DNA of 49,230 nt from positions 1-49,230 of the forward strand of contig CANQLJ010000009.1 in the NCBI GenBank assembly GCA_947624685.1. The letters run 5' to 3'. Below, in pieces: positions 10,304-46,736 of this stretch. The notes beneath the pieces were generated by a model. The model had not been told where the DNA came from. It searched no databases and saw only the letters and a program-made list of their open reading frames with translations. A program made the position numbers and the translations under genes. The stretch comes from Candidatus Gastranaerophilales bacterium (lineage in GTDB: Bacteria > Cyanobacteriota > Vampirovibrionia > Gastranaerophilales > Gastranaerophilaceae). Position 1 is the first letter of the stretch, and each line of letters starts with the position of its first letter.

Positions 10304-10732
10304 CTATATTGCACAAAGGTTTTGGGCAATGTCTAAGAATTTTTTAATAATTTTTTGAGAAATATTAATAATGGCAACTTTCTTTAAAACCTTGAAATCA
10401 AGCTCTTTTATAAGTTTGTTTGCGCCTTTTTCAATTTTTAGGGATTTAATTAGCATAACAATTTGAATGACGTTAATTATCCCGAAAATTATATTTTTGA
10501 CTTGGTATATCTTTTTGTTTGTGATGAATTTGACGACTTTGTTGATTTTTTTCAATATATTATTAATTTCATCGTTAATTTGAAGAATCATTTGCGACGT
10601 TTCGATTAATTTTAAATGAAATTCGTCAATCTTTTTTTCAAACATAACAAGATATTTAACCAAAAAGTATGTGGCAAAAATTTCAAAAACAATTAAAAAA
10701 ATTATTAATAATATGAAAATCAAATTTAACAT
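10304..10732 (-). CDS. small membrane-anchored hypothetical protein
   Basis: 142 residues with one clear N-terminal membrane helix (LIFILLIIFLIVFEIFATYFLV), then a lysine- and isoleucine-rich helical region (HLKLIETSQMILQINDEINN) that may form a coiled coil, and a second hydrophobic stretch near residues 80-97. I do not recognise a family; the layout recalls small single-pass proteins of the DUF948 type, without proof. A TATAAT box ends six bases before the ATG and there is no Shine-Dalgarno, so the mRNA may be leaderless. Divergent from murT. Confidence 0.6.
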   Translation of the reverse strand: MLNLIFILLIIFLIVFEIFATYFLVKYLVMFEKKIDEFHLKLIETSQMILQINDEINNILKKINKVVKFITNKKIYQVKNIIFGIINVIQIVMLIKSLKIEKGANKLIKELDFKVLKKVAIINISQKIIKKFLDIAQNLCAI

Positions 10733-10738
10733 TTATGT

Positions 10739-10767
10739 ATTATAATAAAAGCGGTGTTTTTTTGCTA
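10739..10767 (-). promoter_or_regulatory. putative promoter with -10 box six bases from the ATG
   Basis: TATAAT on the minus strand at 10739-10744 with a weak TAGCAA 17 bases upstream. Only six bases separate the -10 box from the ATG of the gene at 10732. Confidence 0.4.
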
Positions 10768-10797
10768 TACTCAACTTATACTATTTTTAAGGTGAAA

Positions 10798-12168
10798 ATG
10801 GATTTTAAATCAATAGTTAAATGTTCAAGCCTTCTATATAAAATATTAGAAAAAATTAATCTCGAAAAAAAGATTGATGTGGATTCGATTTTGGATAATA
10901 ATTTCCCTCAAGTTCAATCGAGGCTTCAAAGTTACATAAAAAACCAAAAAATCGCCATTTGCCAAACAAACGGCAAAAAAACAACCCTCCAATTTTTAAA
11001 TGAAATATTAAAAGCAAACAACAATACTTTTTCTTCAAACATCGATAAAACCGCAAAAAAATACCCTCTTTTTCTTTCTTTAATACTTGATTTAGCTCAA
11101 AACCCCGATATAATTGATAACGACGAAAAAAAAGACTATTTAAGTGCGTGCTTTGACGAATTTGAGCTTGAAAATTATTTTAATATAATGAAATTCGATT
11201 GCCTTCTTTTGGGCAATTTATTTATTGACCAGAAGGATTACGCCAATCTTGAAGAAAAAAGAGAAAAAATTCAAAAAGCGATAATATTAAATTCCAAGCT
11301 CGATTTAATAATAAACGCGGATGAACCGATGTTTTATAACATTGATGACATTAAAAACGACACTCTTTTAAATAAAAAAAGAAAAAAAATCTTCTATGGC
11401 TTTGATAGTATTGAGTTTTTCGATAACGACAATCAATTGATTCAAAAAAATGACCTCACAAAGTGCCCAAATTGCCTCTGCGACCTTGATTATAAAAAAA
11501 GATACTATTCTCATCTGGGGCATTTTGAATGTGAATGTGGCTTTAAAAGGCCAAAGCTCGATATAAGCGCTTGTGCTCGGGTTTTTAGCGACTATACATT
11601 TTTAAATGTCTTTTATAACGGCAATAAATATGTTTTTAAAGTCCCCTTGGGCGGTGTCTATAATGCATATAACGCTTTAGGAGCGATAAGTGTTGCGCTA
11701 TATCTTAATATCGAAAGAAAAATAATCACATCCGCTTTTGATAATTTTGCTCCCCTAAGCGCGCGGGATGAAAAAATTCAATATAAAAATAAAACAGTTA
11801 AAATAAAAGTAATTAAAAACCCCACATCGCTATCGGAAGCATTAAGAGAGCTTTTTGCAAACAAAAACACAAAAGTTGTCTTTTGTCTTAATGACGCAAA
11901 TAAAGACGGAATCGACACAAGCTGGATATGGGATGCTAATTTTGAAGCTATGAGAGGCTTTGAAAACAAAATTTATGTCACATCAAACAGATTCGACGAT
12001 ATGGCGCTTCGTTTGAAATATGCAAATATCAATCCCTGTTTAATCATAATGGATTCAACACTCAAAAATGCGCTTCAAAGCTGCTTTTGGGACTTGGAAG
12101 AAAATGAAAATATGCTCGTTTTAACAACACCTTCATTGGAAAATGAAGTTCGCAATATATTAAGATAA
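10798..12168 (+). CDS. murT: MurT-like Mur ligase (lipid II isoglutaminyl synthase subunit), orphan
   Basis: A Mur-ligase-fold protein of 456 residues. With GatD, MurT amidates the glutamate of lipid II to isoglutamine. The family hallmark zinc ribbon inside the central domain is visible: CPNC, then HFECECGFKRP about 25 residues later, followed by VPLGGVYNAYNALGAI and a C-terminal MurT-type domain (NDANKDGIDTSWIWDANFE). The P-loop is odd: CQTNGKKTT (Q56 to T63), where Mur ligases normally have GTNGKTT. The start at 10798 is chosen for AAGGTG four bases before it; an in-frame ATG at 10735 is unlikely. The usual gatD partner is not adjacent. Confidence 0.85.
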   Translation: MDFKSIVKCSSLLYKILEKINLEKKIDVDSILDNNFPQVQSRLQSYIKNQKIAICQTNGKKTTLQFLNEILKANNNTFSSNIDKTAKKYPLFLSLILDLAQNPDIIDNDEKKDYLSACFDEFELENYFNIMKFDCLLLGNLFIDQKDYANLEEKREKIQKAIILNSKLDLIINADEPMFYNIDDIKNDTLLNKKRKKIFYGFDSIEFFDNDNQLIQKNDLTKCPNCLCDLDYKKRYYSHLGHFECECGFKRPKLDISACARVFSDYTFLNVFYNGNKYVFKVPLGGVYNAYNALGAISVALYLNIERKIITSAFDNFAPLSARDEKIQYKNKTVKIKVIKNPTSLSEALRELFANKNTKVVFCLNDANKDGIDTSWIWDANFEAMRGFENKIYVTSNRFDDMALRLKYANINPCLIIMDSTLKNALQSCFWDLEENENMLVLTTPSLENEVRNILR

Positions 12169-12204
12169 TGCAACAAATGTTACAAAATTATAAAAATTGT
12201 TGCA
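12169..12204 (+). terminator. possible weak terminator after murT
   Basis: TGCAACAA and TTGTTGCA pair over eight bases, directly after the murT stop, around a 20-base AT-rich loop, followed by AAAATTTT rather than a clean T-run. Confidence 0.3.
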
Positions 12205-12332
12205 AAATTTTAAAAATAATTATAAAATACATGGCATCAAATTGAATAATGGTGCGTTGAATTCTTTATTATTAAAAAATTTTCTGCACTCAATTATAAA
12301 AATTAAATAGAGAGAACAAGGAGATTTAAAAA

Positions 12333-12626
12333 ATGTATGAAGATCAAACCTTAGTTTGCGAGGATTGCGGAAAAGAATTTGTCTTTAGCGCAGGCGAACA
12401 GGAATTTTACGCACAAAAAGGGCTTGTAAACACTCCAAAAAGATGCCCCGAATGCAGAAAAGCAAGAAAACATAAATCAAGAAGAAAAATGTATGATGCA
12501 ATCTGTTCTAAATGCGGCGCAGCGACGAAAGTCCCATTTAAGCCCACCGAAGACAGAGAAATCCTTTGCAAAGAGTGCTTCGCTCAAAAGAAACAAGAAG
12601 AAGCTCAAGCACAAGCAAGTGAATAA
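12333..12626 (+). CDS. CxxC-x17-CxxC zinc-ribbon protein
   Basis: A 97-residue protein with two zinc-ribbon units. The first is CEDC and, 28 residues on, CPEC (EFVFSAGEQEFYAQKG between them), the form known as the probable zinc-binding domain zf-trcl. The second is CSKC, a VPFKPTEDREILC segment and CKEC, the CxxC_CxxC class. The segment between them is basic (RKARKHKSRRK), which suggests nucleic-acid or ribosome contact. The tail is Gln/Ala-rich. The role of the family is unknown. AAGGAG lies nine bases before the ATG and a strong terminator follows. Confidence 0.9.
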   Translation: MYEDQTLVCEDCGKEFVFSAGEQEFYAQKGLVNTPKRCPECRKARKHKSRRKMYDAICSKCGAATKVPFKPTEDREILCKECFAQKKQEEAQAQASE

Positions 12627-12861: not shown

Positions 12862-12889
12862 TAAAGTTTTTGAACGATGTTGACGAATA
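12862..12889 (+). promoter_or_regulatory. sigma-28-like (flagellar late) promoter
   Basis: TAAAGTTT matches the FliA -35 box exactly; twelve bases later GACGAATA shares five of eight positions with GCCGATAA. The expected start leaves a ~33-base leader containing AAGGAG. A sigma-70 alternative overlaps it. Confidence 0.5.
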
Positions 12890-12928: not shown

Positions 12929-14221
12929 ATGGGTGATGAGTTCAACTTAAACCTTCAGAAGATTTTAGATTCCAACCCAAATCTAAAAGCAAAACTTACT
13001 GAAGCCGCAAAAGACGGCCATCTTGACATTGAAGAAATTGCCAAGATGAAACAAGACGGTGTATTTGATGAAAGTTTATTTAATGAACTTACTTCAAATA
13101 TGGGTATCAACACAGAAAATGGCGTTGATGATATTAAAGTTTGGCAAGAAATTTCAGAAGCCATGGATAACTTAAATGATTACCCCGGAGGCCTGGAAGG
13201 CGCTTATGATGATGAAGTGTATAATCCAATCGAAGCCAGAGACATCTATACGGAAAATAACCTTGAAGAAAAAGGCTGGGAAAAATTTGCAAAATATATT
13301 AACGGCGACGTTAATGTCCATGAAGCTCCAGAGCTTGAAGCGCAATCACTTTTAGGTGAATCAAAATTATTAAGCGTTGAAGACCAAAAAGCAATCTTAA
13401 AAGATATAGGGCTTGATATTGATGATGAATCTTTTGAAGCTCATCCGACTAAAGATGGTGACGGTTATTGGTTTTCATATAAGGGCAATGAATCTGAAGA
13501 TAAAGAATGTTTTAAAGTCCTTGAAGCGCCCGATGGCAGCAAATTGTTAGTTTATACAACAATCGATGATGATGGCGATATGGAAGATCCTTTAGGTAAG
13601 ACTCAAGTATTCAGATTACCTAAAGCGAAACCTGAACCTATTAAAGTGGAAGTTAAGCTCCCTGAACCCGAAACGGAGCCGGAACCCGAGCCCGAGCCCG
13701 AGCCCGAACTGGAGCCGGAACCCGAACCCGAGCCCGAACCTGACACACCAACGGAACCTCCCGTAACGGAACCACCCGTCACAGAACCGCCCGTCACAGA
13801 ACCACCCGTTACCGAACCACCCGTTACCGAACCTCCTGTAACAGAACCACCGGTTACCGAACCTCCTGTAACAGAACCCGATGACCCGGGCGATATAATA
13901 GATCCTGATGCAGGTGATAACACGGTCGATGATTTCGAGGATGAACCGACAGACCCCGGTGAAACCGATGATCCTCCGGTAGAAGACCCCGGTGAACCCG
14001 AAAATCCTCCGACTGAAACGCCGGTTGAACCTGACACACCTCCCGGAGGACAAACCGAAGGCGATTGCCCCGATCCTGATGATGTAGATCCGGATGAGGA
14101 TGATTTGAATCCCGATAAGCCGGGCAGCCAAACCGAAGGTGCGGGATCCGAAGGAGAAACGACGGTAACGGTAGAATCAACCGTAGTAGAATTAAATAAA
14201 TATCCGGAAGAAAATCCGTAA
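12929..14221 (+). CDS. acidic Pro/Glu-rich repeat protein with EF-hand-like N-terminus
   Basis: 430 residues, very acidic, with no signal peptide, membrane helix or sortase motif. Residues ~1-230 look folded: an EF-hand-like stretch AAKDGHLDIEEIAKM near residue 27, then YPGGLEGAYDDE and a segment GDGYWFSYKGNE. Residues ~230-275 are Pro-Glu dipeptide repeats, followed by eight PPVTE repeats and a disordered acidic tail. The motif DPDAGDNTVDDFEDEPT also occurs, slightly changed, in the next gene, so the two are related. AAGGAG precedes the ATG. I cannot assign a function. The motility-type promoter and disordered acidic sequence would fit a secreted or flagellum-associated protein; a structural stalk is another possibility. 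Confidence 0.85.
   Translation: MGDEFNLNLQKILDSNPNLKAKLTEAAKDGHLDIEEIAKMKQDGVFDESLFNELTSNMGINTENGVDDIKVWQEISEAMDNLNDYPGGLEGAYDDEVYNPIEARDIYTENNLEEKGWEKFAKYINGDVNVHEAPELEAQSLLGESKLLSVEDQKAILKDIGLDIDDESFEAHPTKDGDGYWFSYKGNESEDKECFKVLEAPDGSKLLVYTTIDDDGDMEDPLGKTQVFRLPKAKPEPIKVEVKLPEPETEPEPEPEPEPELEPEPEPEPEPDTPTEPPVTEPPVTEPPVTEPPVTEPPVTEPPVTEPPVTEPPVTEPDDPGDIIDPDAGDNTVDDFEDEPTDPGETDDPPVEDPGEPENPPTETPVEPDTPPGGQTEGDCPDPDDVDPDEDDLNPDKPGSQTEGAGSEGETTVTVESTVVELNKYPEENP
13754..13873 (+). repeat. eight 15-bp repeats encoding Glu-Pro-Pro-Val-Thr
   Basis: Eight in-frame copies of a 15-base unit. Codons vary synonymously between copies (for example CCC/CCT/CCG for proline and ACG/ACA/ACC for threonine) while the peptide stays constant. 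A Pro-Glu dipeptide run lies just upstream (about 13663-13745). Confidence 0.95.
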
Positions 14222-14234
14222 TAAATAAAATCAT

Positions 14235-14273
14235 AAAGAGCCCCAAACACTATTTTTCAAGGGGCTCTTTTTA
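14235..14273 (+). terminator. intrinsic terminator
   Basis: AAAGAGCCCC (14235-14244) pairs with GGGGCTCTTT (14261-14270) around a 16-base loop, followed by a T-run. It closes the gene at 12929, so the next gene needs its own promoter. Confidence 0.92.
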
Positions 14274-14387
14274 TTTTAAACAAAATGTAAATTTTTATTA
14301 ATTAAAGCTAAAAAATATGTTTAAAATCTTGTGAAATGTGGATTTAACTAAACAGCGTAGAATTTATTTTAGAAGGAAGGTATTAAT

Positions 14388-17105
14388 ATGGATTTAAAAA
14401 TCAACTTTTATGCCGTTCAAGCTGCAAAATCAGATGCGACATCGAACACCTCATCGACTGAAACAGCACAAAGTTCACCCAGTGAAACGACTGATGAACC
14501 GATTATTGATAACAGTGATTCAAACAGCAACTACGAATTTGACAGCAATAACGCTGCTTCTTCAACTGTAATTGCAACAAATGACTATAGCGAAACAACG
14601 ACATACTCTTCCGATGAAAGCTATGTCAGCATGGATACCGCTCAAGATTCACAAGCTTTTGAAAGCCAATATGAAGAATTGATGAGCGAATTAGAGGGCG
14701 ACTTCGCAACCGACGAAGACAGAACCCAAGCAATTTTAGATAATAACGAAGGATTGCTAGACTTTTTAAATGATGCAACAAAAGAACAATTGAATAATGA
14801 CGTCTTAAACGGACTTGACGCGGATAAATTTAACGATAGCCAAAAAGACGCGATTAAAGAACTTCAAGATAAAATCTTAAACGGCGAAGAAGTTGATTTT
14901 AAAGCTCTTGAAAGCAAGTTTACCGCTGATGATATGGATACAATCAAAGCTAACGCGGAAAAAGCCCAAGAAGCAGGAGCAAAACTTCTCGACAGCGAAA
15001 ACTTAGACCTTGCCGAAGTTAAAGAAAAAATCGAAAGCACTGATATTTCAGACTATAAAACCCTTGCTAACGGCAGCCAAATGAGAGAACTCATTTTGGA
15101 TAACTATAAAGACGAAGACGGAAATACAAAACAAATGTCCGAAAACGAAATGAATTCCGCTGCTTGGTCAATCGTTGATAATAACAGATGGATGATGGAT
15201 AACATCAACGAAACTTATAAAGCTTCACAAGTAACAGAAACTTTGATGGGCGACAATGTCTATGAAAGCGATGAAGATATTAAAGGTATCTTAGATATTG
15301 CAAGCACCGTTTCACAAGGGGGCGAATTAAGCGAAGAACAACAAGCATTCGCAAATGAAAAAGGCCTCGATATTCAAAGTGCTCAAACAAAAATTGCAAA
15401 TAATGAATATGACCAATTTGATGCTGATATAAGAACGGATAAGATTCCTCCGGAATTAATCTATGCAACCGATTTTTCAACAAAAGTTGACGGCTCAAAA
15501 CCGGATGATGTGTTCTTGCCTGATATTACAACACTGAACGAAGATAAAGACGTCGTTGAAGCAGATACAATTGTAAGAAACGTTGAATTTAATTCAATTA
15601 ATAAAGACGACTTCCAAATCGATGTTAACGGCTTTGGCACAGATGACGCCGGAAAAGAACAAGCCTATGCTTCAATTAAAGAACAAATCGCAAAGAACTA
15701 CGGACTTGAAGATTTAGACAACATCCAAGGTACAAATATATTAGCCGCAATCGGTAAAGAAGAAAATAACAACGATATTTTTGACAAAAACAACGAAAAT
15801 ATTGATGATTATGCAAAACTATTGTATGAAAAAGCCCTTGAAAACGGCGGTAAATTAGATTTATATTGCCCTGATACCGCAACAAACGTATTGTTTAACG
15901 AAAATGACCTCGTAAAATCCGTCACTGATTTAACAGGCGACGGCACAATCGATGAAAAAGACCGTGAAGAATATGCAAGAAACTATTTAACAAGCCACAA
16001 AGCAGAAGATGTATCATATTTACACGTTGATGCCGATGCTATTTCGTTAAATGAAAACGAAAGCTTAAAAGGTATTGATATATTAAAACACGTTGAATAC
16101 GGTGATACTACATTAGGCGATAAATTAGAAGAATTATACAGACAACAACAAGCAAGCGGAAACGTTAATCCTCAGCTTGGCGCAATGGAAGCTTTAGGTA
16201 TGAGTGCATTGCAACAAATTGCCGAAAATAACCCCGCAATGGCTGAATATCTTCAAGATGACTTAACCGAAAACGATTTGTCGCAGCTGTTAAACAGTAT
16301 CGACTATGCAAGTGTCATAAAAGACCACAACAGAGACTACGGAACAGACGAACAAAAATTAATCTTAGAAAATGTTCAATATGTTAAGGCAGGCGAAAAA
16401 GAAGCCCCGCAAGTTATTGAACCGAAAGTTCAAGTAGCAACTATTTCAACTCCTCAAATTGATGTACCGATTGAAAAACCGAGTATCGAAGAACCTAAGC
16501 AAGAACCCACAACTCCTGCTAAACCCGATACTCCTCCGACAACGCCACCGACAACACCTCCTACAACACCACCATCCGTAACGGTGCCGCCTACTCCAAC
16601 AGCACCTCCGAAAGAAGATGACCCTGATGCAGGCGACAACGTACTTGAAGACTTTGAAGACGAGCCGACATTGCCTCCAAGTCCGACAACACCGGCTTCG
16701 CCAACTACACCTCCCGCAACCGAACCGCCGGTTGAAGATAAACCTCCTGTTGAAACTCAACCTCCGGTACAAGAACCGCAACCGCAACCCGATTGCCCTG
16801 ATAAACCGGATGTAGATAGGTCGCAAGAAGAAGAGGACATTATCCCAACCACCCTAAGCGATAATCCTCCAAGTGCCCCTGAACCTGTAGTAGAATCGCA
16901 ACCGCAACCGCAACCCGAACCGCAACCCGCAGCCGAGCCCGAACCCGCGGCTGACCCTGAACCGGCGGCTGAACCTGAACCCGAGCCGGAACCTGAATCC
17001 GAACCAACGGGCGGAGAAATCGGAGGCTATACTCCGTACGCAGGCGAAGAATTCTATGACAACGATGGTGTCGGAGTTGATGACTTCCTTAGAAGACGCA
17101 GATAA
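14388..17105 (+). CDS. large acidic EF-hand/dockerin-like protein, relative of the preceding gene
   Basis: 905 residues, no Sec signal peptide and no membrane helix. Residues ~12-95 are Ser/Thr/Asn/Asp-rich and probably disordered. Residues ~95-670 are helical and acidic (LNDATKEQLNNDVLNG, DDMDTIKANAEKAQEAG), with one dockerin-type calcium loop DLTGDGTIDEKDREEY starting at residue 514. The C-terminal 200 residues are Pro/Thr/Glu-rich: PPTTPPTTPP runs, a DPDAGDNVLEDFEDEPT motif shared with the gene at 12929, EPAAEPEP runs, and a final GVDDFLRRRR. AAGGAAGG precedes the ATG. Candidate surface or flagellum-exported protein; function unknown. No obvious sigma-28 site, although a weak TAAAATCT lies at the equivalent distance. 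Confidence 0.88.
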   Translation: MDLKINFYAVQAAKSDATSNTSSTETAQSSPSETTDEPIIDNSDSNSNYEFDSNNAASSTVIATNDYSETTTYSSDESYVSMDTAQDSQAFESQYEELMSELEGDFATDEDRTQAILDNNEGLLDFLNDATKEQLNNDVLNGLDADKFNDSQKDAIKELQDKILNGEEVDFKALESKFTADDMDTIKANAEKAQEAGAKLLDSENLDLAEVKEKIESTDISDYKTLANGSQMRELILDNYKDEDGNTKQMSENEMNSAAWSIVDNNRWMMDNINETYKASQVTETLMGDNVYESDEDIKGILDIASTVSQGGELSEEQQAFANEKGLDIQSAQTKIANNEYDQFDADIRTDKIPPELIYATDFSTKVDGSKPDDVFLPDITTLNEDKDVVEADTIVRNVEFNSINKDDFQIDVNGFGTDDAGKEQAYASIKEQIAKNYGLEDLDNIQGTNILAAIGKEENNNDIFDKNNENIDDYAKLLYEKALENGGKLDLYCPDTATNVLFNENDLVKSVTDLTGDGTIDEKDREEYARNYLTSHKAEDVSYLHVDADAISLNENESLKGIDILKHVEYGDTTLGDKLEELYRQQQASGNVNPQLGAMEALGMSALQQIAENNPAMAEYLQDDLTENDLSQLLNSIDYASVIKDHNRDYGTDEQKLILENVQYVKAGEKEAPQVIEPKVQVATISTPQIDVPIEKPSIEEPKQEPTTPAKPDTPPTTPPTTPPTTPPSVTVPPTPTAPPKEDDPDAGDNVLEDFEDEPTLPPSPTTPASPTTPPATEPPVEDKPPVETQPPVQEPQPQPDCPDKPDVDRSQEEEDIIPTTLSDNPPSAPEPVVESQPQPQPEPQPAAEPEPAADPEPAAEPEPEPEPESEPTGGEIGGYTPYAGEEFYDNDGVGVDDFLRRRR

Positions 17106-17190: not shown

Positions 17191-17222
17191 AATTCAACAA
17201 TTCAACAATTCAACAATTCAAT
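17191..17222. repeat. four tandem 8-bp AATTCAAC units
   Basis: Three exact copies and one variant (AATTCAAT) head to tail between the terminator of the acidic-protein gene and the stop codon of cheA. Confidence 0.85.
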
Positions 17223-20200
17223 TAATAATTTAAAATGCTTTCAATTTTATTTATTAAGTCATTTTGGCTGAACAGATTTTTTTGGATGTAATCGGTGATA
17301 TTAAGTTCTTCAATATCTTGGATATAGTGTTCTTTTGGTTCTGAACTTACGATGATTACCGGAATATCTTTAAATTCTTTTGTATTTCTTAAATGTCTTA
17401 CAAATTCAATCCCTGTCATTTCGGGCATTTGAACATCCGAGATGATTAAGTCAAATTTTGTTGTTTTCATTTTTTCAAGCGCATGGATTGGATTAGTTGC
17501 GCTTGAGACGTTATAGCCGTAATTAAAGAGGATATTTTTTTGCAAAATCCTTGTGGTGTGGGAATCATCCACGACCATAATTTTATATTTATAGTTATCT
17601 TTTGTTTTTAAGATGCCGTTTTTAGATATTATTTTTGTGCCGACTTTTTTAGAGTTAATTGTTGCAATAATATCAGAAAGGCTCAAAACAAGGCAGGCTT
17701 CGCCGTTGGCAAGTGTTGTGATGCCTGAAATGTGTTTAACTTTGTACAGGGGAGCTGCGAGCTTTTTGTGGACAATTTCCTGATCTGAAATCAGTTTTTC
17801 AACGATTATTCCAAATGTCGCGTTTTCCGTCTCGATTATCAAAAGAGTGTATTTGCTTGCTTCTCTTGGGGTGTTTTCGAAATTTAATATTTGAGATAAT
17901 GTGTGAATCATAATTGCATTATTGTTATAAATGCAATAGTTATGATTATCTTTTTCAAAAATTTCATCGGAATTTATCCGAACAATTGTTTTAATTGCCG
18001 ATGTTTCAATTGCAAAAAGCTGGTTTTGTTCTTCGATGATAAATACTTTTTTGGTTGCAACCGTGGCGGGTAACATCACTCGAACCATCGTTCCGCGGTT
18101 TAATTGGGAGAAAATGTCGATTCTTCCTTGCATGTGGGTGATTTTGTTGTTTACTATATCAAGCCCCAAGCCTCTGCCTGATAATTCCGTCACAAAGTCT
18201 TCCGTCGAAAAGCCGGGGTAAAATATAAGATTTGTAATTTCCTCGTCACTTATCGCATCAAGCTCCGCTTTGGTTAAAATCTGTTTTTCCAGTGCTTTTG
18301 CTTTAATTTTTTCAATATCTAAGCCTCTGCCGTCGTCTGTAACGTCAACTATGACTTTTCCGTCTTTATAGCTTGCGTTTATTTCGATTTTTCCGGTGGG
18401 GTTTTTACCCATCTCTTTTCTTTTTTGAGGGTCTTCGATTCCATGGTCAATTGCGTTTCTGATTATATGCATCAGAGGAATCTTCAATTCTTCAATAATT
18501 GTTTTGTCGGCTGTAATATCGGCCCCGTTTATGATTAAATCTATTTTTTTATTTTTGTCGCGAGCGATGTTATGAACCATCCTCGGAAAAAGCGCAAATA
18601 TCGTCGACATAGGTAAAACGCGCATGTTTTTAACCATCTGGTCAATTTCGGTTGTTGTCGAATTGAGCTTTGTTTCGCTTTCTTGCAATTGCTTAAAAAG
18701 ATAGGACATATCTTTTATAAGATGAGACAATCTTTCGTTATGCTGGCTTGCAAAGACGGATAATTGCTTGTTGTGAGCCACTATTTTTCTAAAATCATTT
18801 TCATGTTCAAAAGGGTTTGAGAGGTATTTTTTGTCGAAATATTTTATATAATAGCTCATTTTTGAAACATGTTTTTGCCAATCGATTAAGTCATTGTTGA
18901 TTTTTTTGACCAATAAAAGCTGTTCGTTTGTTTTGATTTTTGATACGATGAGCTCTCCAATTTGCGAAACCAAATTATCAAGCTTATCCGAATCGACCCG
19001 AAGGGTCTTAATTTCGGTGTTTGTGATTGTGCTGAAAATATCTTTTTGATTTTCGTTTAATTTTGTGCTGCTTTGAGTTTTCAGATTACTGTTTTGAAAA
19101 TTTGACATTTTATCAAAAACATCAATTTTGATTTTTGCTTCTTTAATCTCCTCTTGATTATTTGATTTTATTGCGTTTAAGACTTCTTTTATCCCCAAGA
19201 TTAAATCTTGTTTTAAATTGATGTTTTTTGATTTATGAGTTTTTAAAATGTTTAATAAAACCTGATAAATCTGTTTTATTGTTTCGTTGTTTGAGCTATG
19301 GATTAAAGCGTTAATTTGCTCTATTATTTCATCAAAAAATTCAAAAGTATGTTCCAAAAGAGAAATTTTGTCGATAAGTTCATCAAACTTTGCGTTTGAG
19401 ACGATATTAGGCGTGATTGATTGCGGTTGTGATTGTGGTTGCGGTTGATTTTGGCTTTGCTGTTGGTTTTGGGATTTATTTTGCTCATTTTGAAGTCTTT
19501 TTTCAACTTCTTCATAGTAATCTTTTCTTTTGAAATTTTGATTATCAACATAAGCGCTAAAATTTGTTATAAAATTATTAACGCATTCATTAATCTCTAA
19601 GAAGCTTAAAGCCTTGTTATCGGTGAGCGAAAACTTTTCCGTTGCTTTAGATATATTTGAAATTGAAGTTTTTATGTCATTTAATTTTTCGTCATTTACT
19701 TTTGAAATTAGATTATTAAAGTTTTCGATATTTTTATCAAGCTCAAAAATCTTGTCGAAATTATTCTTCAACCTTGAATATGAAACGATATAGAGCATTT
19801 CAACAATTATATTTTCGATGTTATCAAAGTTGATTAAAAATTCTTTTTGGCTCGGTTCAATTTCGCAATTGATGTTTACATATTGTTTTTCTTGTTCAAG
19901 TCTTGCTAAAGACTCTAATTTTTCAATATATTTATCTAAATCGGGGCTTTTAAATTCTTTTTTTTGTGAAACCGTTTTATTAACCAAAATCAGAATAAAT
20001 TCAAGGCATTCCGAGATGACATCTGCTATATATGTTGTTATTTCAAGCTTTTGCTCTTTAATGAGGCTTATAATATCTTCTATTTTATGAGCAAGGTTTT
20101 GAATGTCTTCAAACCCGAGCATGCGAGCCGAACCCTTGAGCGAATGCGCGTCTCTAAAAAGCTGCATTGCCGTTTCATAGTTTTTTGGGTCTTTTTCCAA

Positions 20201-20296
20201 AATCAAAAGCTTTCCATCCATCGCAGTGATGATTTCGGTGCTTTCTTGCTGGAAGATGTTTAATATTTCATTTAGCTCATCTTTTTGAAATTCCAT
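17222..20296 (-). CDS. cheA: hybrid chemotaxis histidine kinase CheA-REC
   Basis: 1024 residues. Domains in order: Hpt with the phospho-accepting H51 in RDAHSLKGSARMLG; a long helical linker with a Gln/Ser/Pro-rich tract near residues 270-290; a dimerisation region; the HATPase with HIIRNAIDHGIEDP (N box), DDGRGLD (G1) and ELSGRGLGLDIV (G2); a CheW-like regulatory domain beginning KKVFIIEEQNQLFAIE; and a C-terminal receiver (IMVVDDSHTTR, aspartate in IISDVQMPEMTG). The kinase controls motility through phosphotransfer; the fused receiver is either a phosphate sink or an output. CheA-REC fusions are common in cyanobacterial Pix/Hmp/Tax-type systems and pilus chemosensory systems. It follows the MCP gene by 25 bp on the same strand. 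Confidence 0.96.
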   Translation of the reverse strand: MEFQKDELNEILNIFQQESTEIITAMDGKLLILEKDPKNYETAMQLFRDAHSLKGSARMLGFEDIQNLAHKIEDIISLIKEQKLEITTYIADVISECLEFILILVNKTVSQKKEFKSPDLDKYIEKLESLARLEQEKQYVNINCEIEPSQKEFLINFDNIENIIVEMLYIVSYSRLKNNFDKIFELDKNIENFNNLISKVNDEKLNDIKTSISNISKATEKFSLTDNKALSFLEINECVNNFITNFSAYVDNQNFKRKDYYEEVEKRLQNEQNKSQNQQQSQNQPQPQSQPQSITPNIVSNAKFDELIDKISLLEHTFEFFDEIIEQINALIHSSNNETIKQIYQVLLNILKTHKSKNINLKQDLILGIKEVLNAIKSNNQEEIKEAKIKIDVFDKMSNFQNSNLKTQSSTKLNENQKDIFSTITNTEIKTLRVDSDKLDNLVSQIGELIVSKIKTNEQLLLVKKINNDLIDWQKHVSKMSYYIKYFDKKYLSNPFEHENDFRKIVAHNKQLSVFASQHNERLSHLIKDMSYLFKQLQESETKLNSTTTEIDQMVKNMRVLPMSTIFALFPRMVHNIARDKNKKIDLIINGADITADKTIIEELKIPLMHIIRNAIDHGIEDPQKRKEMGKNPTGKIEINASYKDGKVIVDVTDDGRGLDIEKIKAKALEKQILTKAELDAISDEEITNLIFYPGFSTEDFVTELSGRGLGLDIVNNKITHMQGRIDIFSQLNRGTMVRVMLPATVATKKVFIIEEQNQLFAIETSAIKTIVRINSDEIFEKDNHNYCIYNNNAIMIHTLSQILNFENTPREASKYTLLIIETENATFGIIVEKLISDQEIVHKKLAAPLYKVKHISGITTLANGEACLVLSLSDIIATINSKKVGTKIISKNGILKTKDNYKYKIMVVDDSHTTRILQKNILFNYGYNVSSATNPIHALEKMKTTKFDLIISDVQMPEMTGIEFVRHLRNTKEFKDIPVIIVSSEPKEHYIQDIEELNITDYIQKNLFSQNDLINKIESILNY

Positions 20297-20321
20297 TTTC
20301 CTTGCCTTGTTTAAATGAGCG

Positions 20322-21371
20322 CTATATAACTGATTGTTTTAAATTGCTTGAAGCGTTTTCGATTTTTTCAAAAATTGCTTCGTTATTTTTTGTAATTTCG
20401 TCGCTTGATTCAACAATTTGAGATATTTCTTTGATGAACCCGTCTGTTTGAGAGCAATCGGAATTTATTTGTTTGCTTGAATTTAAAATTTCTCCCATGT
20501 TGCTTGAAATTTCGCTCATCGCGCTGATTAATTTTTCGATATTTTCGCTTATCACATGGGCTAATTCCAAACCCGATTCAATTTCTTTTGTACCTTCTTC
20601 GGTTGCTAATACCGTTGAATTTGCGGTTTGTTGAATGTCGTTAATAAGAGAAATTATTTTTGTCGTTGCTTGTTTTGATTCATCGGCGAGCTTTCTGATT
20701 TCGGACGCTACAACGGCAAAACCTTTTCCGTGTTCGCCTGCGCGGGCTGCTTCAACTGCGGCATTTAAGGCAAGAAGGTTTGTTTGTTCGGCAATATCTT
20801 CGACAAGCCCGATAGTGGAAGATATTGATTGGACAAAATCGGACAATTCAAGGATTAACTCCGCGATTGTTTGGATTTTGTGTCTTATTGAAAACATTTT
20901 TTCGATGTTTGTTTTGACCGCGCCATATTCATTATTTGTGAAATCGAGCGACTCGTCGGTTTTTTGTCTTGTTTGATTTGTTAAATCTTCCATTTGAGAA
21001 GAAAATTTTTGTAAATTATCCACAAGCTCTTGCATGTTTTTGATTTTGTTATCGGAGAGAGCATTATTTTCTTTTTGAGAATTGTTTGAATTTTGTGCGC
21101 TGTTTACTTCGTCTATTGTTTGGCTGAAAGCGTCTTGTACGAATTTATTCAGGGGATTTTTAACTTCGTTTTTGCTATATTCAAAGATGAATACCAAAAT
21201 TAAAAATTCCATAAATATTGCGATAAATAAGTCATAGCTTATAAAACCAAAAAATTTAACCAAACAAAATGTGACAAAAAGCGCGATAAACATACATCCG
21301 CAATCGAAAATTTGTTTTTTTAAGAGTTGTTTATTGATGTTTATTTTATTATTATCTACTTCTTTTAACAT
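20322..21371 (-). CDS. methyl-accepting chemotaxis protein without a periplasmic sensor
   Basis: 349 residues. Two adjacent membrane helices (about residues 19-40 and 45-65: [18 protein letters not shown] and [16 protein letters not shown]) are joined by only a few residues, so there is no ligand-binding domain and no recognisable HAMP. The rest is a cytoplasmic coiled-coil signalling rod with the canonical hairpin tip [20 protein letters not shown] and [15 protein letters not shown]. It must sense membrane state, a cytoplasmic cue or another protein. AAGGTGGA precedes the ATG. Probably transcribed with cheA. Confidence 0.95.
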
Positions 21372-21441
21372 ATTCCACCTTATATAAAAAAATTGTATAA
21401 TTATAATTACATTATAGTAAAATATTAAAAAAAGTTAAGAT

Positions 21442-22878
21442 ATGACAAAAAAACTAATTATTATAGATGATAGTCTCTTGCAATTGAATGTTTTAAAAAC
21501 ATTTTTCTCTAATAACGGCTGGGAAGCTTTGGGAGTTCAAAACGCAAAAATCGGCTATGAAATGATATTTGATTTCGCTCCGGATTTAATAATAACAGAC
21601 GCAATTATGCCTGTTATGGGCGCAAGCTCATTAATTAAATCCATAAGACAAAATGAAAAAATATCCAAAATACCGATAATTGTCTATAGTGTATTGGATG
21701 AAATTAACGCAAAATTCTATGTCAAAGAAGAATTAAACGAATATTTCCTCAAAAAAAGCGAAAAACATAACGAGCTTTTGGATTTGGCTAATTTAATCGT
21801 CGAAAAATATCCGCTTGATGAAGAATATAAAAATGAAATATTAAAAATCGGCATCCAAAACTACGAAACAAAACAACAAAACGAGCTCCAAAGTGAACAA
21901 CAAAATGAGCAAAATGACGATGATGTTTCAAAAAACGCAAATATAAATAAGTTTGACAAAAAAGAATATGAAACGGAAATTAAGATTCTTTTAAATTCTC
22001 AAAACAACGAAAATAAAATAATTCCCGAGTTATTTTTGATTTTATATCCGAAATTTAACTATAATCTCTGTTTAATAAGCCTGTTTTCTTTTGAAAACAA
22101 CGAAAGAACAACATATTTTGATATTAAAGATATTATTTTAAGCCCCAAGTTTAAAGATGACGTCTTAGAAAAGCACAAAAGCGCGCTCAGCGTGATGTAT
22201 AAAAAATATGCGCCAAATTTAAAAACGATTGTTAATGAAAATGAATTTTTATCAAAAATCGAATTTTCAATCGAATGCAGGGATAAAAATATTGTTAATA
22301 TCGGATTTTACTCTTGCGAAAATTTGAAATGGAACGATGAAACCCTTATTGAAACGACAAAAGACCTTCTTGAAAATTTCTTTAAGACGTATTTTAATAA
22401 AAAATCCTCCTCAAAAAGCCTCAAAGACGACATTGGAAACAGATATTTTCCGTTTTTAAATAATAAATTTGAAAATATAAAAAATTCTTCCAATAACGCA
22501 TATTTTACAATAATTCAGATTTCAAACTATCAAGAACTCAGTTTGAATCTGCATCATGAGGATATGGATTTAATCAATTCAATGATTTCTAAAAAAATCG
22601 TCGATTGCCTTGAAGATAATGAACAGATATACAGAAGCGACATTGACGAATATAGCGTCGTAATTTTTGCAAAAAACGATAAACAAGCTCAAAACAGGCT
22701 CAACTACATCGTAAATAACATAGATAAAATGGTATATGAAGAAGAAAAAGTCGAAATATTAATCGGCGCAAGCCCCTGTATTTTTGATAATAATTTTGAT
22801 TTAGCTCAAGCACAAAAGATGGCAAGAATTGCGCTTGATGAAGCGGAAGTTGATAAAGTGGTATTAAAAAATGGATGA
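21442..22878 (+). CDS. response regulator with degenerate GGDEF-like output domain
   Basis: 478 residues. Residues 1-120 are a receiver (KKLIIIDDS, phospho-aspartate in LIITDAIMPVMG). The middle is a poorly recognisable linker rich in Gln/Asn around residue 150. Residues ~345-478 resemble a GGDEF domain, with DIDEY at residues 400-404 in place of GGDEF and an ending AQKMARIALDEAEVDKVV like the end of that fold. Loss of both glycines argues against cyclic-di-GMP synthesis; it may bind a nucleotide or act as a protein-interaction domain. It overlaps the downstream CheW-type gene by eight bases and is divergent from the mcp-cheA pair. Confidence 0.8.
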   Translation: MTKKLIIIDDSLLQLNVLKTFFSNNGWEALGVQNAKIGYEMIFDFAPDLIITDAIMPVMGASSLIKSIRQNEKISKIPIIVYSVLDEINAKFYVKEELNEYFLKKSEKHNELLDLANLIVEKYPLDEEYKNEILKIGIQNYETKQQNELQSEQQNEQNDDDVSKNANINKFDKKEYETEIKILLNSQNNENKIIPELFLILYPKFNYNLCLISLFSFENNERTTYFDIKDIILSPKFKDDVLEKHKSALSVMYKKYAPNLKTIVNENEFLSKIEFSIECRDKNIVNIGFYSCENLKWNDETLIETTKDLLENFFKTYFNKKSSSKSLKDDIGNRYFPFLNNKFENIKNSSNNAYFTIIQISNYQELSLNLHHEDMDLINSMISKKIVDCLEDNEQIYRSDIDEYSVVIFAKNDKQAQNRLNYIVNNIDKMVYEEEKVEILIGASPCIFDNNFDLAQAQKMARIALDEAEVDKVVLKNG

Positions 22879-33862: not shown

Positions 33863-33901
33863 AAAAACAAAAAATAGTATTATTTGAAGGATAGAAGTTA
33901 T

Positions 33902-34378
33902 ATGGATTTTATTGATGACAGGACGCGCTCAATCGGGCAAATGGCGCTTGATGGGCTTTATGAAAGAGCTAAAGCAATAAGCTCTAATACCGTTAATGTT
34001 TTAACTCCGAATTATCAAAGAAAAGAAGTGAGCTTTGAAAAAAGCCTTCAAGACATAATCAAAAAAGAAAATGAAAAAGAAGATACAAAGCTTCAAAATT
34101 CAAAGCTTTTCGCGTCCGACATCAACAAGGCTCTAAAAGGTCAAACCCTGGAACAATTTGCGCTTAATCAGGGACTGGGCGATTTAAATAAAGATGATTT
34201 TATAATTGATGTTCAAAATGACCTAAGCGACGCTAACGGAACGGATGGCAACAATGTCGATTTGGAAGTTGAAATGATGGATGAAGCTAAAAACGGTATG
34301 CAATATCAAGTTGTGGCTTCACTGTTATCAAGGTCATATTCATTAATGAACAATATCATCTCGGGTCAAAACCGATAG
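33902..34378 (+). CDS. flgB: flagellar basal-body rod protein FlgB
   Basis: Proximal rod protein of the flagellum, exported by the flagellar type III apparatus. 158 residues from the ATG at 33902 (GAAGGA nine to ten bases upstream). The N-terminal AISSNTVNVLTPNYQRKEVSFE matches the rod-protein signature (ASNLANxxTPGYK), and the C-terminal MQYQVVASLLSRSYSLMNNII is the usual coiled-coil end. First of flgB-flgC-fliE. Confidence 0.93.
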   Translation: MDFIDDRTRSIGQMALDGLYERAKAISSNTVNVLTPNYQRKEVSFEKSLQDIIKKENEKEDTKLQNSKLFASDINKALKGQTLEQFALNQGLGDLNKDDFIIDVQNDLSDANGTDGNNVDLEVEMMDEAKNGMQYQVVASLLSRSYSLMNNIISGQNR

Positions 34379-34414
34379 TTTAAAATAAAAATGAGGGGAA
34401 GAGGTTAAATTAAA

Positions 34415-34906
34415 ATGAGCTTTAATGTTTTTGATATAGCAGCAACGGGAATGCACGCTCAAAGAATCAAAATGGATACGATTTCATCAAATATCGCAAA
34501 CATTAATACCACAAGAAACGAGCGCGGCGAAAAAGAAGTCTACAGAAAAAAAGAAGTCAATTTTAAAGAAATGGCGCTTAATAATAAAACGACATTTCCA
34601 AAAGGCAACGTCTCGGTTGAATTTGACCCGCCCGAAGAACCGTATTTGACAGGCGGTGTCACAATGACAAATAATGTGATATCGAAAGGCGTTATGGTGG
34701 ATTCTATCGTCGATAGCGATAACCCGACAAGAATCGTGTATGACCCGAATCACCCGGATGCCGATGAAAACGGATATGTGGAATTACCTAATGTCAATGT
34801 TGTTGAAGAAATGGTTAATATGGTAAATGCTTCTCGTGCTTATGAAGCTAATATCACGCTTGCTCAAACAACAAAAACAATGATTCAAAGCGCAATCAAC
34901 ATATAA
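34415..34906 (+). CDS. flgC: flagellar basal-body rod protein FlgC
   Basis: Rod protein, 163 residues. The N-terminal segment FDIAATGMHAQRIKMDTISSNIANINTTRNERG and the C-terminal VELPNVNVVEEMVNMVNASRAYEAN are diagnostic. GGGGAAGAGG precedes the ATG. It lies 36 bp after flgB and 36 bp before fliE. Confidence 0.97.
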   Translation: MSFNVFDIAATGMHAQRIKMDTISSNIANINTTRNERGEKEVYRKKEVNFKEMALNNKTTFPKGNVSVEFDPPEEPYLTGGVTMTNNVISKGVMVDSIVDSDNPTRIVYDPNHPDADENGYVELPNVNVVEEMVNMVNASRAYEANITLAQTTKTMIQSAINI

Positions 34907-34942
34907 AAATTATATGGGAAATTATATGGGGGAGGATAAAAA

Positions 34943-35386
34943 ATGGGTTATAATTTTAATATAAATCCAAATATTAGCCCGAATTTTAAATTAAACAGTT
35001 TTGAAAACAGCATTCAAGAATTTAATAAAATTTTTCAAAATTCGATTAATAATGTAAATTCAAACATTCAAGGTTCAAAATCGTTTGATGAAATATTTAA
35101 TGATGAAGAAATGTTATCAGGCACCGTCACAAAAACCCAAAATATCTCCCCGAGCGCTAAGATGGCCTCTGACATTAAAAATGGATTTTTAGATGGGATT
35201 AATCAATTAAATGAAACGCAAAAAAGCGCCCAAGACGCTTTTGAAACATTTGCTTCAGGGGGCGATATAAGCGTGCATGAGGTAATGATTCAAAGCCAAA
35301 AATCAAACCTTGCAATGCAAATGGCAATTCAATTGAGAAATCAAATGATTAACGCTTATCAAGAATTTAAAAATTTGTCAATTTAG
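34943..35386 (+). CDS. fliE: flagellar hook-basal body complex protein FliE
   Basis: Connects the MS ring to the rod. 147 residues, longer than the usual ~100 because of an Asn-rich N-terminal extension. The C-terminal half has GGDISVHEVMIQSQKSNLAMQMAIQLRNQMINAYQE, the conserved FliE helix. The AGG of GGGGGAGG lies nine bases before the ATG. Third gene of the rod operon. Confidence 0.92.
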   Translation: MGYNFNINPNISPNFKLNSFENSIQEFNKIFQNSINNVNSNIQGSKSFDEIFNDEEMLSGTVTKTQNISPSAKMASDIKNGFLDGINQLNETQKSAQDAFETFASGGDISVHEVMIQSQKSNLAMQMAIQLRNQMINAYQEFKNLSI

Positions 35387-44959: not shown

Positions 44960-46672
44960 TTATTCTACGTTATGACCTTTTCTTGCTTTTTCGGGGTGTC
45001 TTTGTCTATAGTCATAGCTGGCTTGAAGCGTAAACACGTCGTCTTGGGTTTTTGCTATTCTTTCTCTTAAGATATTAATTGAATCTTTTTTATCTTGATC
45101 AAGCGCATCTTTAGCGTTATTATAAGCCTCTTGTGCCTGTTGAAGCTTTTCGTTTGAGCTGTTTATTCTATCTTCAATTGCTTGTTTTTCTTCGTTTAGT
45201 TTATCAAGTTTTTCTTGCTCTTTTGCTTGCGCTTCTTCTTTTGCTTGGACGTCGGCTTTTGCTTCCTGCAAGGCTGCATAAGTTTTATTATGGGCTTCTA
45301 CCGCTTTATCGTTAGCATCTTTAGCGTCTTCTTCTTTTCTTTCGGCTGCAAGTTGAGCGTCAAGCGCTTCTTGATAAGCAGCTTCAGCTTCATCATACGC
45401 AGCATCGACTTCGCTTGTGTCGACTTCTTCACCTTCGCTTTCACCGTCTTCACCTTCGCTTCCGGATGAACTTTGAGCAGCAGCGGCTTCTTTTGCGGCT
45501 TGTGCTTGTTCATAAGCGGCTTTTGCGTCTGCTACATTAGCATCAGCTTCTTTATGTTCATTTTGAGCTTCGCCCCAAGCAGGCCCTGTTTCATTTTCCA
45601 TTCTGCCATAGGCTTCGTTATTTTCTAAATCTGCATTGGTTAAATTTTGTTGAGATTCGCTCAACGCAAGGTCAGCTTCACTTACGGCGCTTTCTTGAGC
45701 GGAAATTTCATCCATTTTAGCGGATAATTCTTGTGCTAAGTCGCTATCGACTTCATTTAATGCGCTTAAATAATCTTCTTTTAAGCTTTCAACGTTACTT
45801 GCGGCCTCGCTAAATTCAGGGTCAGATCCGTTTGTGATTGCCGTTAATTCGTCTTGTTGGGATTTTAAAAGATCTTTTCCCTCATCAAGCTGAGCTTTGA
45901 TTTCTTCATCAGAGACATTCTTGCCTAATTTTGGTTGTGTTGTAACGTCCGTATTTACATAAGCGCTTACAATGCCGTTTGATGCTCTGCCTGCGCCTGC
46001 TGTACTTTGAGAAGCGCTTGAAGCATCGGCTGAAATATTAGATGCGCTTTGAGCTTCATTATTCATTTTTGCAGAACCGCCCGAAGAAGAAGCAGAACCG
46101 CCCGATGCTTTAGAGCTCCCCGAAGCCCCGTTCGAAGAGCCTCCCGAGGAAGAACCTTGAGGGTAATTTGCGGTTATACCGCTTCCTTGGTTTGTGTTTA
46201 ATCTTTGAGAAGCAGGCTGTTTGTCGCTGTTTGAGCTGCTTTTTGAGGAGCCGCCTTTAAACTTTTCTATATCTTTTTGTGAAATACCCGAATCATCGCC
46301 ATCTAAACCGCTTATTTTGTCATAAAGTTCTCTTAATTCGCTTTCGTCTAAATCGCCGCTGCCATCAAGGTCATACTGTTTCATTACGTTTTCATCTTTC
46401 ATCAATTCACCGATGAAACCCGCAAAAGCATCAGCGTCTTCATAATCTTTTGTATCATCTTTTTTTGTTGTTTCGCTTGATGTTGATGATGATGAGCCGC
46501 TTGATTTTGAAGAATTTGACGCAAAAATCGAATCGTTTTTAGATTCGGTCTTAGAGCCGCTTTTGGATTCTTGGCTTTCTTTTGCATTATCTGTACCTTG
46601 AGCTGTACCTTGAGCGGACTTTTTAAACAATTGTAAAAATTGAGAAAAGCTTAAATTCATATTGTTTTTCAT
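44960..46672 (-). CDS. EF-hand and coiled-coil protein with disordered Ser-rich N-terminus
   Basis: 570 residues, no signal peptide or membrane helix. Residues ~20-90 are Ser/Lys/Thr-rich and disordered. Two EF-hand loops follow near residues 100-140 (DLDGSGDLDESE and DGDDSGISQKD), then a Ser/Gly/Ala-rich linker. A long acidic coiled coil runs from ~260 to the end, with heptad-like Ala/Glu/Lys repeats. It ends HPEKARKGHNVE. The sigma-28-like promoter at 46710-46736 and an AGGGTG site support the start at 46672. By sequence type it belongs with the acidic proteins at 12929 and 14388. Candidate flagellar-regulon, possibly flagellum-exported protein; function unknown. Confidence 0.85.
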   Translation of the reverse strand: MKNNMNLSFSQFLQLFKKSAQGTAQGTDNAKESQESKSGSKTESKNDSIFASNSSKSSGSSSSTSSETTKKDDTKDYEDADAFAGFIGELMKDENVMKQYDLDGSGDLDESELRELYDKISGLDGDDSGISQKDIEKFKGGSSKSSSNSDKQPASQRLNTNQGSGITANYPQGSSSGGSSNGASGSSKASGGSASSSGGSAKMNNEAQSASNISADASSASQSTAGAGRASNGIVSAYVNTDVTTQPKLGKNVSDEEIKAQLDEGKDLLKSQQDELTAITNGSDPEFSEAASNVESLKEDYLSALNEVDSDLAQELSAKMDEISAQESAVSEADLALSESQQNLTNADLENNEAYGRMENETGPAWGEAQNEHKEADANVADAKAAYEQAQAAKEAAAAQSSSGSEGEDGESEGEEVDTSEVDAAYDEAEAAYQEALDAQLAAERKEEDAKDANDKAVEAHNKTYAALQEAKADVQAKEEAQAKEQEKLDKLNEEKQAIEDRINSSNEKLQQAQEAYNNAKDALDQDKKDSINILRERIAKTQDDVFTLQASYDYRQRHPEKARKGHNVE

Positions 46673-46709: not shown

Positions 46710-46736
46710 TTTTCGGATTATTATTTAAAAACTTTA
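46710..46736 (-). promoter_or_regulatory. sigma-28 (FliA)-like promoter
   Basis: TAAAGTTT (all eight bases of the FliA -35 box), an 11-base spacer, then TCCGAAAA (six of eight with GCCGATAA). The predicted start leaves a ~31-base leader with AGGGTG before the ATG at 46672. A good match to the enterobacterial consensus, in a genome that has flagella. Confidence 0.65.

What the first reader, a model, noticed from the sequence alone, without database searches (positions are those of the whole stretch)
12929..17105. Tandem acidic EF-hand-like proteins without Sec signals: candidate flagellum-exported or surface proteins
The genes at 12929 and 14388 share a DPDAGDN...DFEDEPT motif and a DCPD-type acidic tail, have EF-hand or dockerin-type calcium loops, long Pro/Glu tails and no signal peptide. 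With the protein at 44960 they form an informal set: disordered Ser/Thr/acidic N-termini, calcium loops and two sigma-28-like promoters. Type III flagellar export substrates typically have disordered N-termini and no cleaved signal. The set could be an undescribed flagellar-coupled secretion or surface system.
Basis: inference. Interest (0 to 1): 0.7.

Follow-up and report, generated by a model that had tools for sequence, protein, structure and literature searches.

The report
Signal-less repeat-tailed protein family, gut bacteria
Two neighbouring genes in a gut bacterium of the Cyanobacteria lineage encode acidic proteins with long repetitive tails and no classical secretion signal; one belongs to a family found only in this genus, including species that have lost flagella, so they are not flagellum-bound, and a second flagellum-like export machine that the whole order keeps is the more likely way out of the cell.

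Summary
The observation mostly holds. Both ORFs are real, lack a Sec signal, have long Pro/Glu/Thr tails, and share DPDAGDN...DFEDEPT and a Cys-Pro tail motif. The calcium loops hold only for the 44960 protein: P0002's single loop is absent from its relatives, and P0001 gives no EF-hand match. P0002 is a family of a predicted ~440-aa helical domain (AlphaFold pLDDT 86, no PDB match) plus a fast-changing tail. It is in 23 of 28 genomes of the genus and 0 of 30 outside. It is kept in both flagellum-less genus members and missing from five flagellated ones, so coupling to the flagellum is not supported. P0001's own N-terminal part is an orphan. The 44960 family combines an EF-hand, a coiled coil and, in some relatives, a CHAP wall-hydrolase domain, again without a signal peptide. 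New here: nearly all Gastranaerophilales sampled carry a second flagellar-type export gate, kept complete in eight genomes without the flagellar gate (own FlhA2 94% identical to that of flagellum-less G010). In five genus genomes the P0002 gene lies about 1.5-3 kb from its hook/FliJ/FliK cluster. I infer surface proteins, probably exported by this second system. The export route is not shown.

The parts
12929..14221 (+). P0001, 430 aa: orphan N-terminal part (1-230) plus Pro/Glu/Thr repeat tail (231-430); no Sec signal
13901..13951 (+). DPDAGDNTVDDFEDEPT, tail motif shared with P0002
14066..14086 (+). Cys-Pro tail motif CPDPDDV (family form C[PVDE]xxPx[VIT])
12862..12889 (+). sigma-28-like TAAAGTTT-N12-GACGAATA, 67 bp before P0001 (13/16; 9 of 300 shuffles reach it); function unproven
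14388..17105 (+). P0002, 905 aa: N-terminal linker with 'SSTVIATNDY' box, insertion, conserved domain, repeat tail
15063..16388 (+). conserved domain of the P0002 family (AF2 pLDDT 86.2, pTM 0.80; no PDB match)
15927..15962 (+). DLTGDGTIDEKD, dockerin/EF-type loop in an insertion absent from relatives
16389..17102 (+). Pro/Thr/Glu repeat tail of P0002
16620..16670 (+). DPDAGDNVLEDFEDEPT, tail motif shared with P0001
16794..16814 (+). Cys-Pro tail motif CPDKPDV
44960..46672 (-). P0003, 570 aa: N-terminal helix, S/T-rich linker with 'DSIFASN' box, EF-hand, coiled coil; no Sec signal
46337..46372 (-). canonical EF-hand loop DLDGSGDLDESE of P0003, kept in relatives
46710..46736 (-). sigma-28-like TAAAGTTT-N11-TCCGAAAA, 64 bp before P0003 (14/16; 0 of 300 shuffles reach it)
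10304..12626 (.). neighbours (small TM gene, MurT-C ligase, treble-clef gene) that are also next to P0002 orthologues in relatives
33884..35386 (+). FlgB, FlgC, FliE of the flagellum proper (system 1), for contrast with system 2 on other contigs

Best explanation
P0002 is a genus-specific cell-surface or secreted protein: a compact, mostly helical domain presented on a Pro/Thr/Glu stalk that carries Cys-Pro motifs, perhaps for covalent cross-linking. P0001 shares the tail type but carries a different, orphan N-terminal part. The Sec-less forms (P0002 group A, P0001, P0003) most likely leave the cell through a second flagellar-type type III export apparatus ('system 2') that the Gastranaerophilales keep even after losing flagella. 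The paralogous group B is probably exported by Sec. Shown: the family, its two N-terminal versions, its genus-limited range, its independence of the flagellum, and the existence and conservation of system 2. Inferred: extracellular location, stalk role, and use of system 2.
For: The domain family is in 23 of 28 genus genomes and 0 of 30 others. Paralogues with the same domain and tail have a hydrophobic segment at residues ~45-75, some with a lipobox (NTVSC, GVTGC), which suggests that the domain works outside the cytoplasm in group B. Tails are low-complexity stalk-type with a conserved C[PVDE]xxPx[VIT] motif in most tails that run to a complete end. A second gate is present beside the flagellar one: FlhA2, FliP2, FlhB2 and a FlgE-like protein, kept in eight genomes without FlhA1 and FliP1 (seven of them with no flagellin-domain hit at all). 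FlhA2 is 94% identical between own and G010. In G002, G003, G012, G017 and (by the 256-aa cluster gene at its contig end) G009, P0002 lies about 1.5-3 kb from the FliN/FliL/FliJ/FliK/FlgE-like cluster of system 2. P0003 relatives carry CHAP domains without a signal.
Against: No secretion data. In the window's own genome and in G010, P0002 is not next to system 2 genes. Adjacency in relatives may be one inherited arrangement. The P0002 family is limited to one genus while system 2 is order-wide, and five genus members with system 2 lack the family. No export signal was demonstrated; the '[S][VIA]F' box was chosen after looking.
Confidence: 0.42

Rival explanations
1. The proteins are exported by the flagellum itself (system 1) and belong to a flagellar or sigma-28 regulon.
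For: Sigma-28-like sites before P0001 and P0003; a FliA/WhiG sigma factor is encoded; chemotaxis genes lie downstream at 17222-23908.
Against: The P0002 domain is kept in G010 and G027, which lack FlhA1 and FliP1, and absent from five flagellated genus members. The FliA-type sigma is also kept in non-flagellates. Flagellin genes of the genus lack the consensus.
Confidence: 0.1
2. Group A has an unrecognised export route of another kind (type I with an uncleaved C-terminal signal, or release by lysis), not type III.
For: No Sec signal but stalk-like tails; acidic, Asp/Gly-rich stretches near several C-termini.
Against: No RTX repeats were seen, and no adjacent ABC/MFP/TolC set was recognised in the fetched loci, whose genes were only partly annotated; C-termini are not alike between relatives.
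Confidence: 0.2
3. P0001, P0002 and P0003 are cytoplasmic acidic proteins (scaffold or calcium buffer), and only the paralogues with a hydrophobic segment are exported.
For: No signal or TM segment and high Asp+Glu content.
Against: Long, fast-changing Pro/Thr repeat tails and conserved Cys-Pro motifs are usual in surface proteins; P0003 relatives carry CHAP wall-hydrolase domains.
Confidence: 0.2

Closest known systems
Flagellar-type type III export apparatus (FlhAB/FliPQR with FliFHJ and rod/hook proteins)
   Same: System 2 has FlhA, FlhB, FliO, FliP, FliQ, FliR, FliF, FliH, FliE, FliJ, FliK-like, FliL, FliN and FlgC/FlgE/F-like proteins
   Different: It is a second copy beside the real flagellum and is kept where flagellin and the flagellar FlhA1/FliP1 are gone; a soluble FlhA-C-only paralogue accompanies it
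Injectisome (non-flagellar T3SS)
   Same: Used without a filament; its SctQ-like protein scores on both FliN and SctQ models
   Different: FliR, FlhB and FliF score higher on flagellar than on Sct models; flagellar-type rod/hook genes are present; secretin and needle were not looked for
CHAP wall hydrolases with N-terminal coiled coil (PcsB-like architecture, from memory)
   Same: P0003 relatives L034 and L032 have coiled coil plus CHAP
   Different: No Sec signal, an EF-hand N-terminal module, and P0003 itself has no CHAP domain
EF-hand / dockerin proteins
   Same: P0003 has a canonical DxDxSGxLxxxE loop
   Different: P0001 and P0002 match no EF-hand or dockerin model; P0002's loop is not conserved

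Membership tests
Flagellum-coupled (flagellar) export substrate | occurs with flagella and is lost with them | tested here: not met
   kept in 2 of 2 flagellum-less genus members, absent from 5 flagellated ones; small sample
Flagellum-coupled (flagellar) export substrate | sigma-28 promoter shared with flagellin genes | tested here: inconclusive
   sites before P0001 and P0003 only; flagellin genes of the genus lack the consensus
Substrate of the second flagellar-type export system | a complete second export gate exists in every genome that has the protein | tested here: met
   second-class FliP found in every genus genome and FlhA2-class hits in them, some on fragmented contigs; second FlhB found in all genus genomes tested for it
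Substrate of the second flagellar-type export system | gene near system 2 genes | tested here: inconclusive
   within about 1.5-3 kb in G002, G003, G009, G012, G017; not in the window genome or G010
Substrate of the second flagellar-type export system | N-terminal signal needed for secretion | not testable with these tools
   needs a secretion assay
Dockerin | dockerin repeat pair (PF00404) | tested here: not met
   no match in P0001-P0003 nor in the whole genome
EF-hand protein (P0003) | canonical EF loop | tested here: met
   DLDGSGDLDESE; EF-hand_1 E 9e-4, under Pfam's cut-off; conserved in relatives
CHAP hydrolase (P0003 itself) | CHAP domain | tested here: not met
   absent in P0003, present in relatives L034 (E 1.2e-12) and, below cut-off, L032
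Known fold for the P0002 domain | significant structural match in the PDB | tested here: inconclusive
   Foldseek best E 2.2, VIA Z at most 3.4; does not prove a new fold

The most novel reading that the evidence does not exclude
Gastranaerophilales carry a flagellum-derived but non-motile secretion machine, conserved across the order and kept after loss of flagella, that exports a changing set of signal-less surface proteins (the P0002 family) and EF-hand/coiled-coil proteins, some of them wall hydrolases (the P0003 family).
Probability: 0.3. Interest if true: 0.82.

Novelty: new variant of a known kind. Interest (0 to 1): 0.55.

Why it matters
If true, an abundant but poorly known gut lineage of Cyanobacteria has a dedicated non-flagellar secretion machine with its own cargo. 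That would explain why flagellar genes persist in non-motile Gastranaerophilales, a point on which earlier papers disagreed (PMC5877343 reports both the flagellated and the incomplete-set readings), and would give a testable set of surface proteins.

Tried and rejected
Dockerin/EF-hand reading of P0001 and P0002: no models match and the loop is not conserved. Phage origin: no PHROG match; the NCBIfam DarA hit of P0001 (23 bits against a cut-off of 350) overlaps the acidic/Pro-Glu stretch and was rejected as compositional. P0001 relatives: none in 58 genomes beyond low-complexity tail hits and none in the genome-contig scan, where the window's own genome may be left out. Fold of the P0002 domain: no PDB match, and no sequence match in solved structures below E 0.1. 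P0001 1-235 folded alone gave a low-confidence model (pLDDT 63.6) and was not searched. Sigma-28 as a regulon marker: not shared by relatives or flagellins. The PMC library held no paper that, by its abstract or matched passages, describes type III secretion in Melainabacteria or Gastranaerophilales; subscription papers and preprints are not covered.
Full report
What was checked. The window is contig 9 of a 2.0-Mb genome. Both ORFs are as described: P0001 12929-14221 (430 aa) and P0002 14388-17105 (905 aa); the third protein, P0003, is 44960-46672 on the minus strand. The shared DPDAGDN...DFEDEPT and Cys-Pro motifs are real, the tails are repeats, and none of the three has a hydrophobic segment.

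Calcium loops. Only P0003 has a loop that is canonical and conserved in its relatives (EF-hand_1 E 9e-4, below Pfam's cut-off). P0002's DLTGDGTIDEKD lies in an insertion that relatives lack. P0001 gives no match, and the genome has no dockerin.

P0002 family. Searches of 58 relatives and a profile (alignment A1) find the P0002 domain in 23 of 28 genomes of the genus and in none of 30 others. AlphaFold2 gives a confident model (pLDDT 86.2, pTM 0.80), mostly helical, without a significant PDB match. Tails differ in repeat unit (TEPPV, ETTTPPP, PTQA, SSD, PEVTD and others), but tails that run to a complete end mostly keep C[PVDE]xxPx[VIT] motifs; several members are cut at contig ends within the repeats. 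Two versions occur, in many genomes one of each. Group A (with P0002) starts with a short helix-like stretch and a Ser/Thr-rich linker. Group B starts with a 'DSVSFSG'-type tag followed by a hydrophobic segment at residues ~45-75, in places ending in a lipobox. This suggests that the domain acts outside the cytoplasm at least in group B.

P0001. Its tail resembles P0002-type tails, but its N-terminal part has no relative in 58 genomes or in the genome-contig scan (the window's own genome may be left out there). A single-sequence model is of low confidence.

P0003. Relatives in the genus share the EF-hand region and coiled coil; L034 (and L032 below cut-off) end in a CHAP domain. In G007 a coiled-coil stretch resembling P0003 is joined to a P0002 domain in one ORF (L088). 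This resemblance was judged by eye.

Is it flagellum-coupled? Each genome was scored for FlhA, FliP, flagellin and, in 16 genomes, FlhB. Flagellated genomes have two full-length FlhA classes (E about 1e-260 and 1e-216), two FliP classes and two FlhB; fragmented assemblies blur this in a few. G010, G028, G029, G030, G033, G034 and G047 have no flagellin-domain hit and lack FlhA1 and FliP1. G027 also lacks FlhA1 and FliP1 and has one flagellin-domain hit. All eight keep the second FlhA, FliP and FlhB. Within the genus the P0002 domain is in both flagellum-less members (G010, G027) and missing from five flagellated ones (G016, G018, G019, G021, G025); Fisher p = 1, with only two flagellum-less genomes.

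The second system. In the window's genome: an SLT transglycosylase, FliE2, FliF2, an unassigned 326-aa protein, FliH2 and FlhA2 (contig 19); a SctQ/FliN-like protein and FliO-, FliP-, FliQ- and FliR-like proteins (contig 10; the same genes of G010 typed); FliN, FliL, FliJ, FliK-like and FlgE-like (contig 2); FlgC- and FlgF/G-like (contig 45; placed in system 2 by inference); FlhB2 (contig 60). The FlgE-like protein is found at E < 1e-80 in 54 of 57 Gastranaerophilales; the other three genomes are 75-82% complete. FlhA2 is 94%, FliP2 89% and FlgE2 85% identical between this genome and flagellum-less G010, against 39% between the genome's own FlhA1 and FlhA2. A soluble FlhA-C-only paralogue (483 aa), closer to FlhA2, accompanies it. 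Earlier work counted such genes as flagellar: two flhA genes are in the shared list of PMC3787301, and PMC5877343 notes that authors disagreed on motility because gene sets were incomplete.

Link between P0002 and system 2. In G002, G003, G012 and G017 the P0002 gene lies about 1.5-3 kb from the FliN/FliL/FliJ/FliK/FlgE-like cluster. In G009 it lies beside the 256-aa gene of that cluster at a contig end. In G024 and G011 it is 9 and 18 kb away. In the window's genome and in G010 it is elsewhere. This may be one inherited arrangement, so it is suggestive only.

Promoters. A sigma-28-like site before P0003 beats all 300 shuffles and one before P0001 beats 291 of 300. Relatives do not share them, 16 flagellin upstream regions of the genus show no such consensus, and FliA/WhiG is kept in non-flagellates. 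The sites cannot be read as a flagellar regulon.

Conclusion. Shown: a genus-restricted two-version protein family, not tied to the flagellum, and a conserved second flagellar-type export apparatus in the order. Inferred: surface location, and export of the signal-less versions by that apparatus. A type I route, release by lysis, or a cytoplasmic role remain open.

Noticed in passing
L041:13226-14674 (own genome), L051:8646-10097 (G010), L056:13814-15265 (G024): A soluble protein that carries only the FlhA C-terminal domain (FHIPEP 321-656) behind a short N-terminal part is found in nearly all Gastranaerophilales and is closer to FlhA2 than to FlhA1.
   Followed up: partly
L040:2625-9451, L047:7591-11578, L128:2910-8234, L127:2518-4804, L129:3318-4502: Own-genome parts of the second flagellar-type export system, whose gate is kept in eight genomes without the flagellar gate.
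   Followed up: partly
L044:6485-6916, L051:12323-13011, L062:15665-16597, L040:12485-14119 and others: An N-terminal tag of the type MxI...(N/S)xF(K/S/G)(G/A/S) is about three times denser in the first 70 residues than elsewhere (0.78 against 0.25 per 1000 aa), on otherwise unlike proteins; candidate export tag.
   Followed up: partly
P0002 group A and P0003 family, residues ~30-70: A '[S][VIA]F' box (ESIFAENSN in G010, DSIFASNSS in P0003) recurs in both families; regex chosen after looking.
   Followed up: partly
L111-L126: Flagellin genes of the genus have conserved upstream stretches without the E. coli sigma-28 consensus although a FliA/WhiG sigma is encoded.
   Followed up: partly
window:35405-37147: 581-aa protein after flgBC-fliE without a Pfam or NCBIfam match.
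   Followed up: no
window:23925-25163: ORF with an I-HmuI/NUMOD-like domain between chemotaxis and DnaJ-like genes.
   Followed up: no
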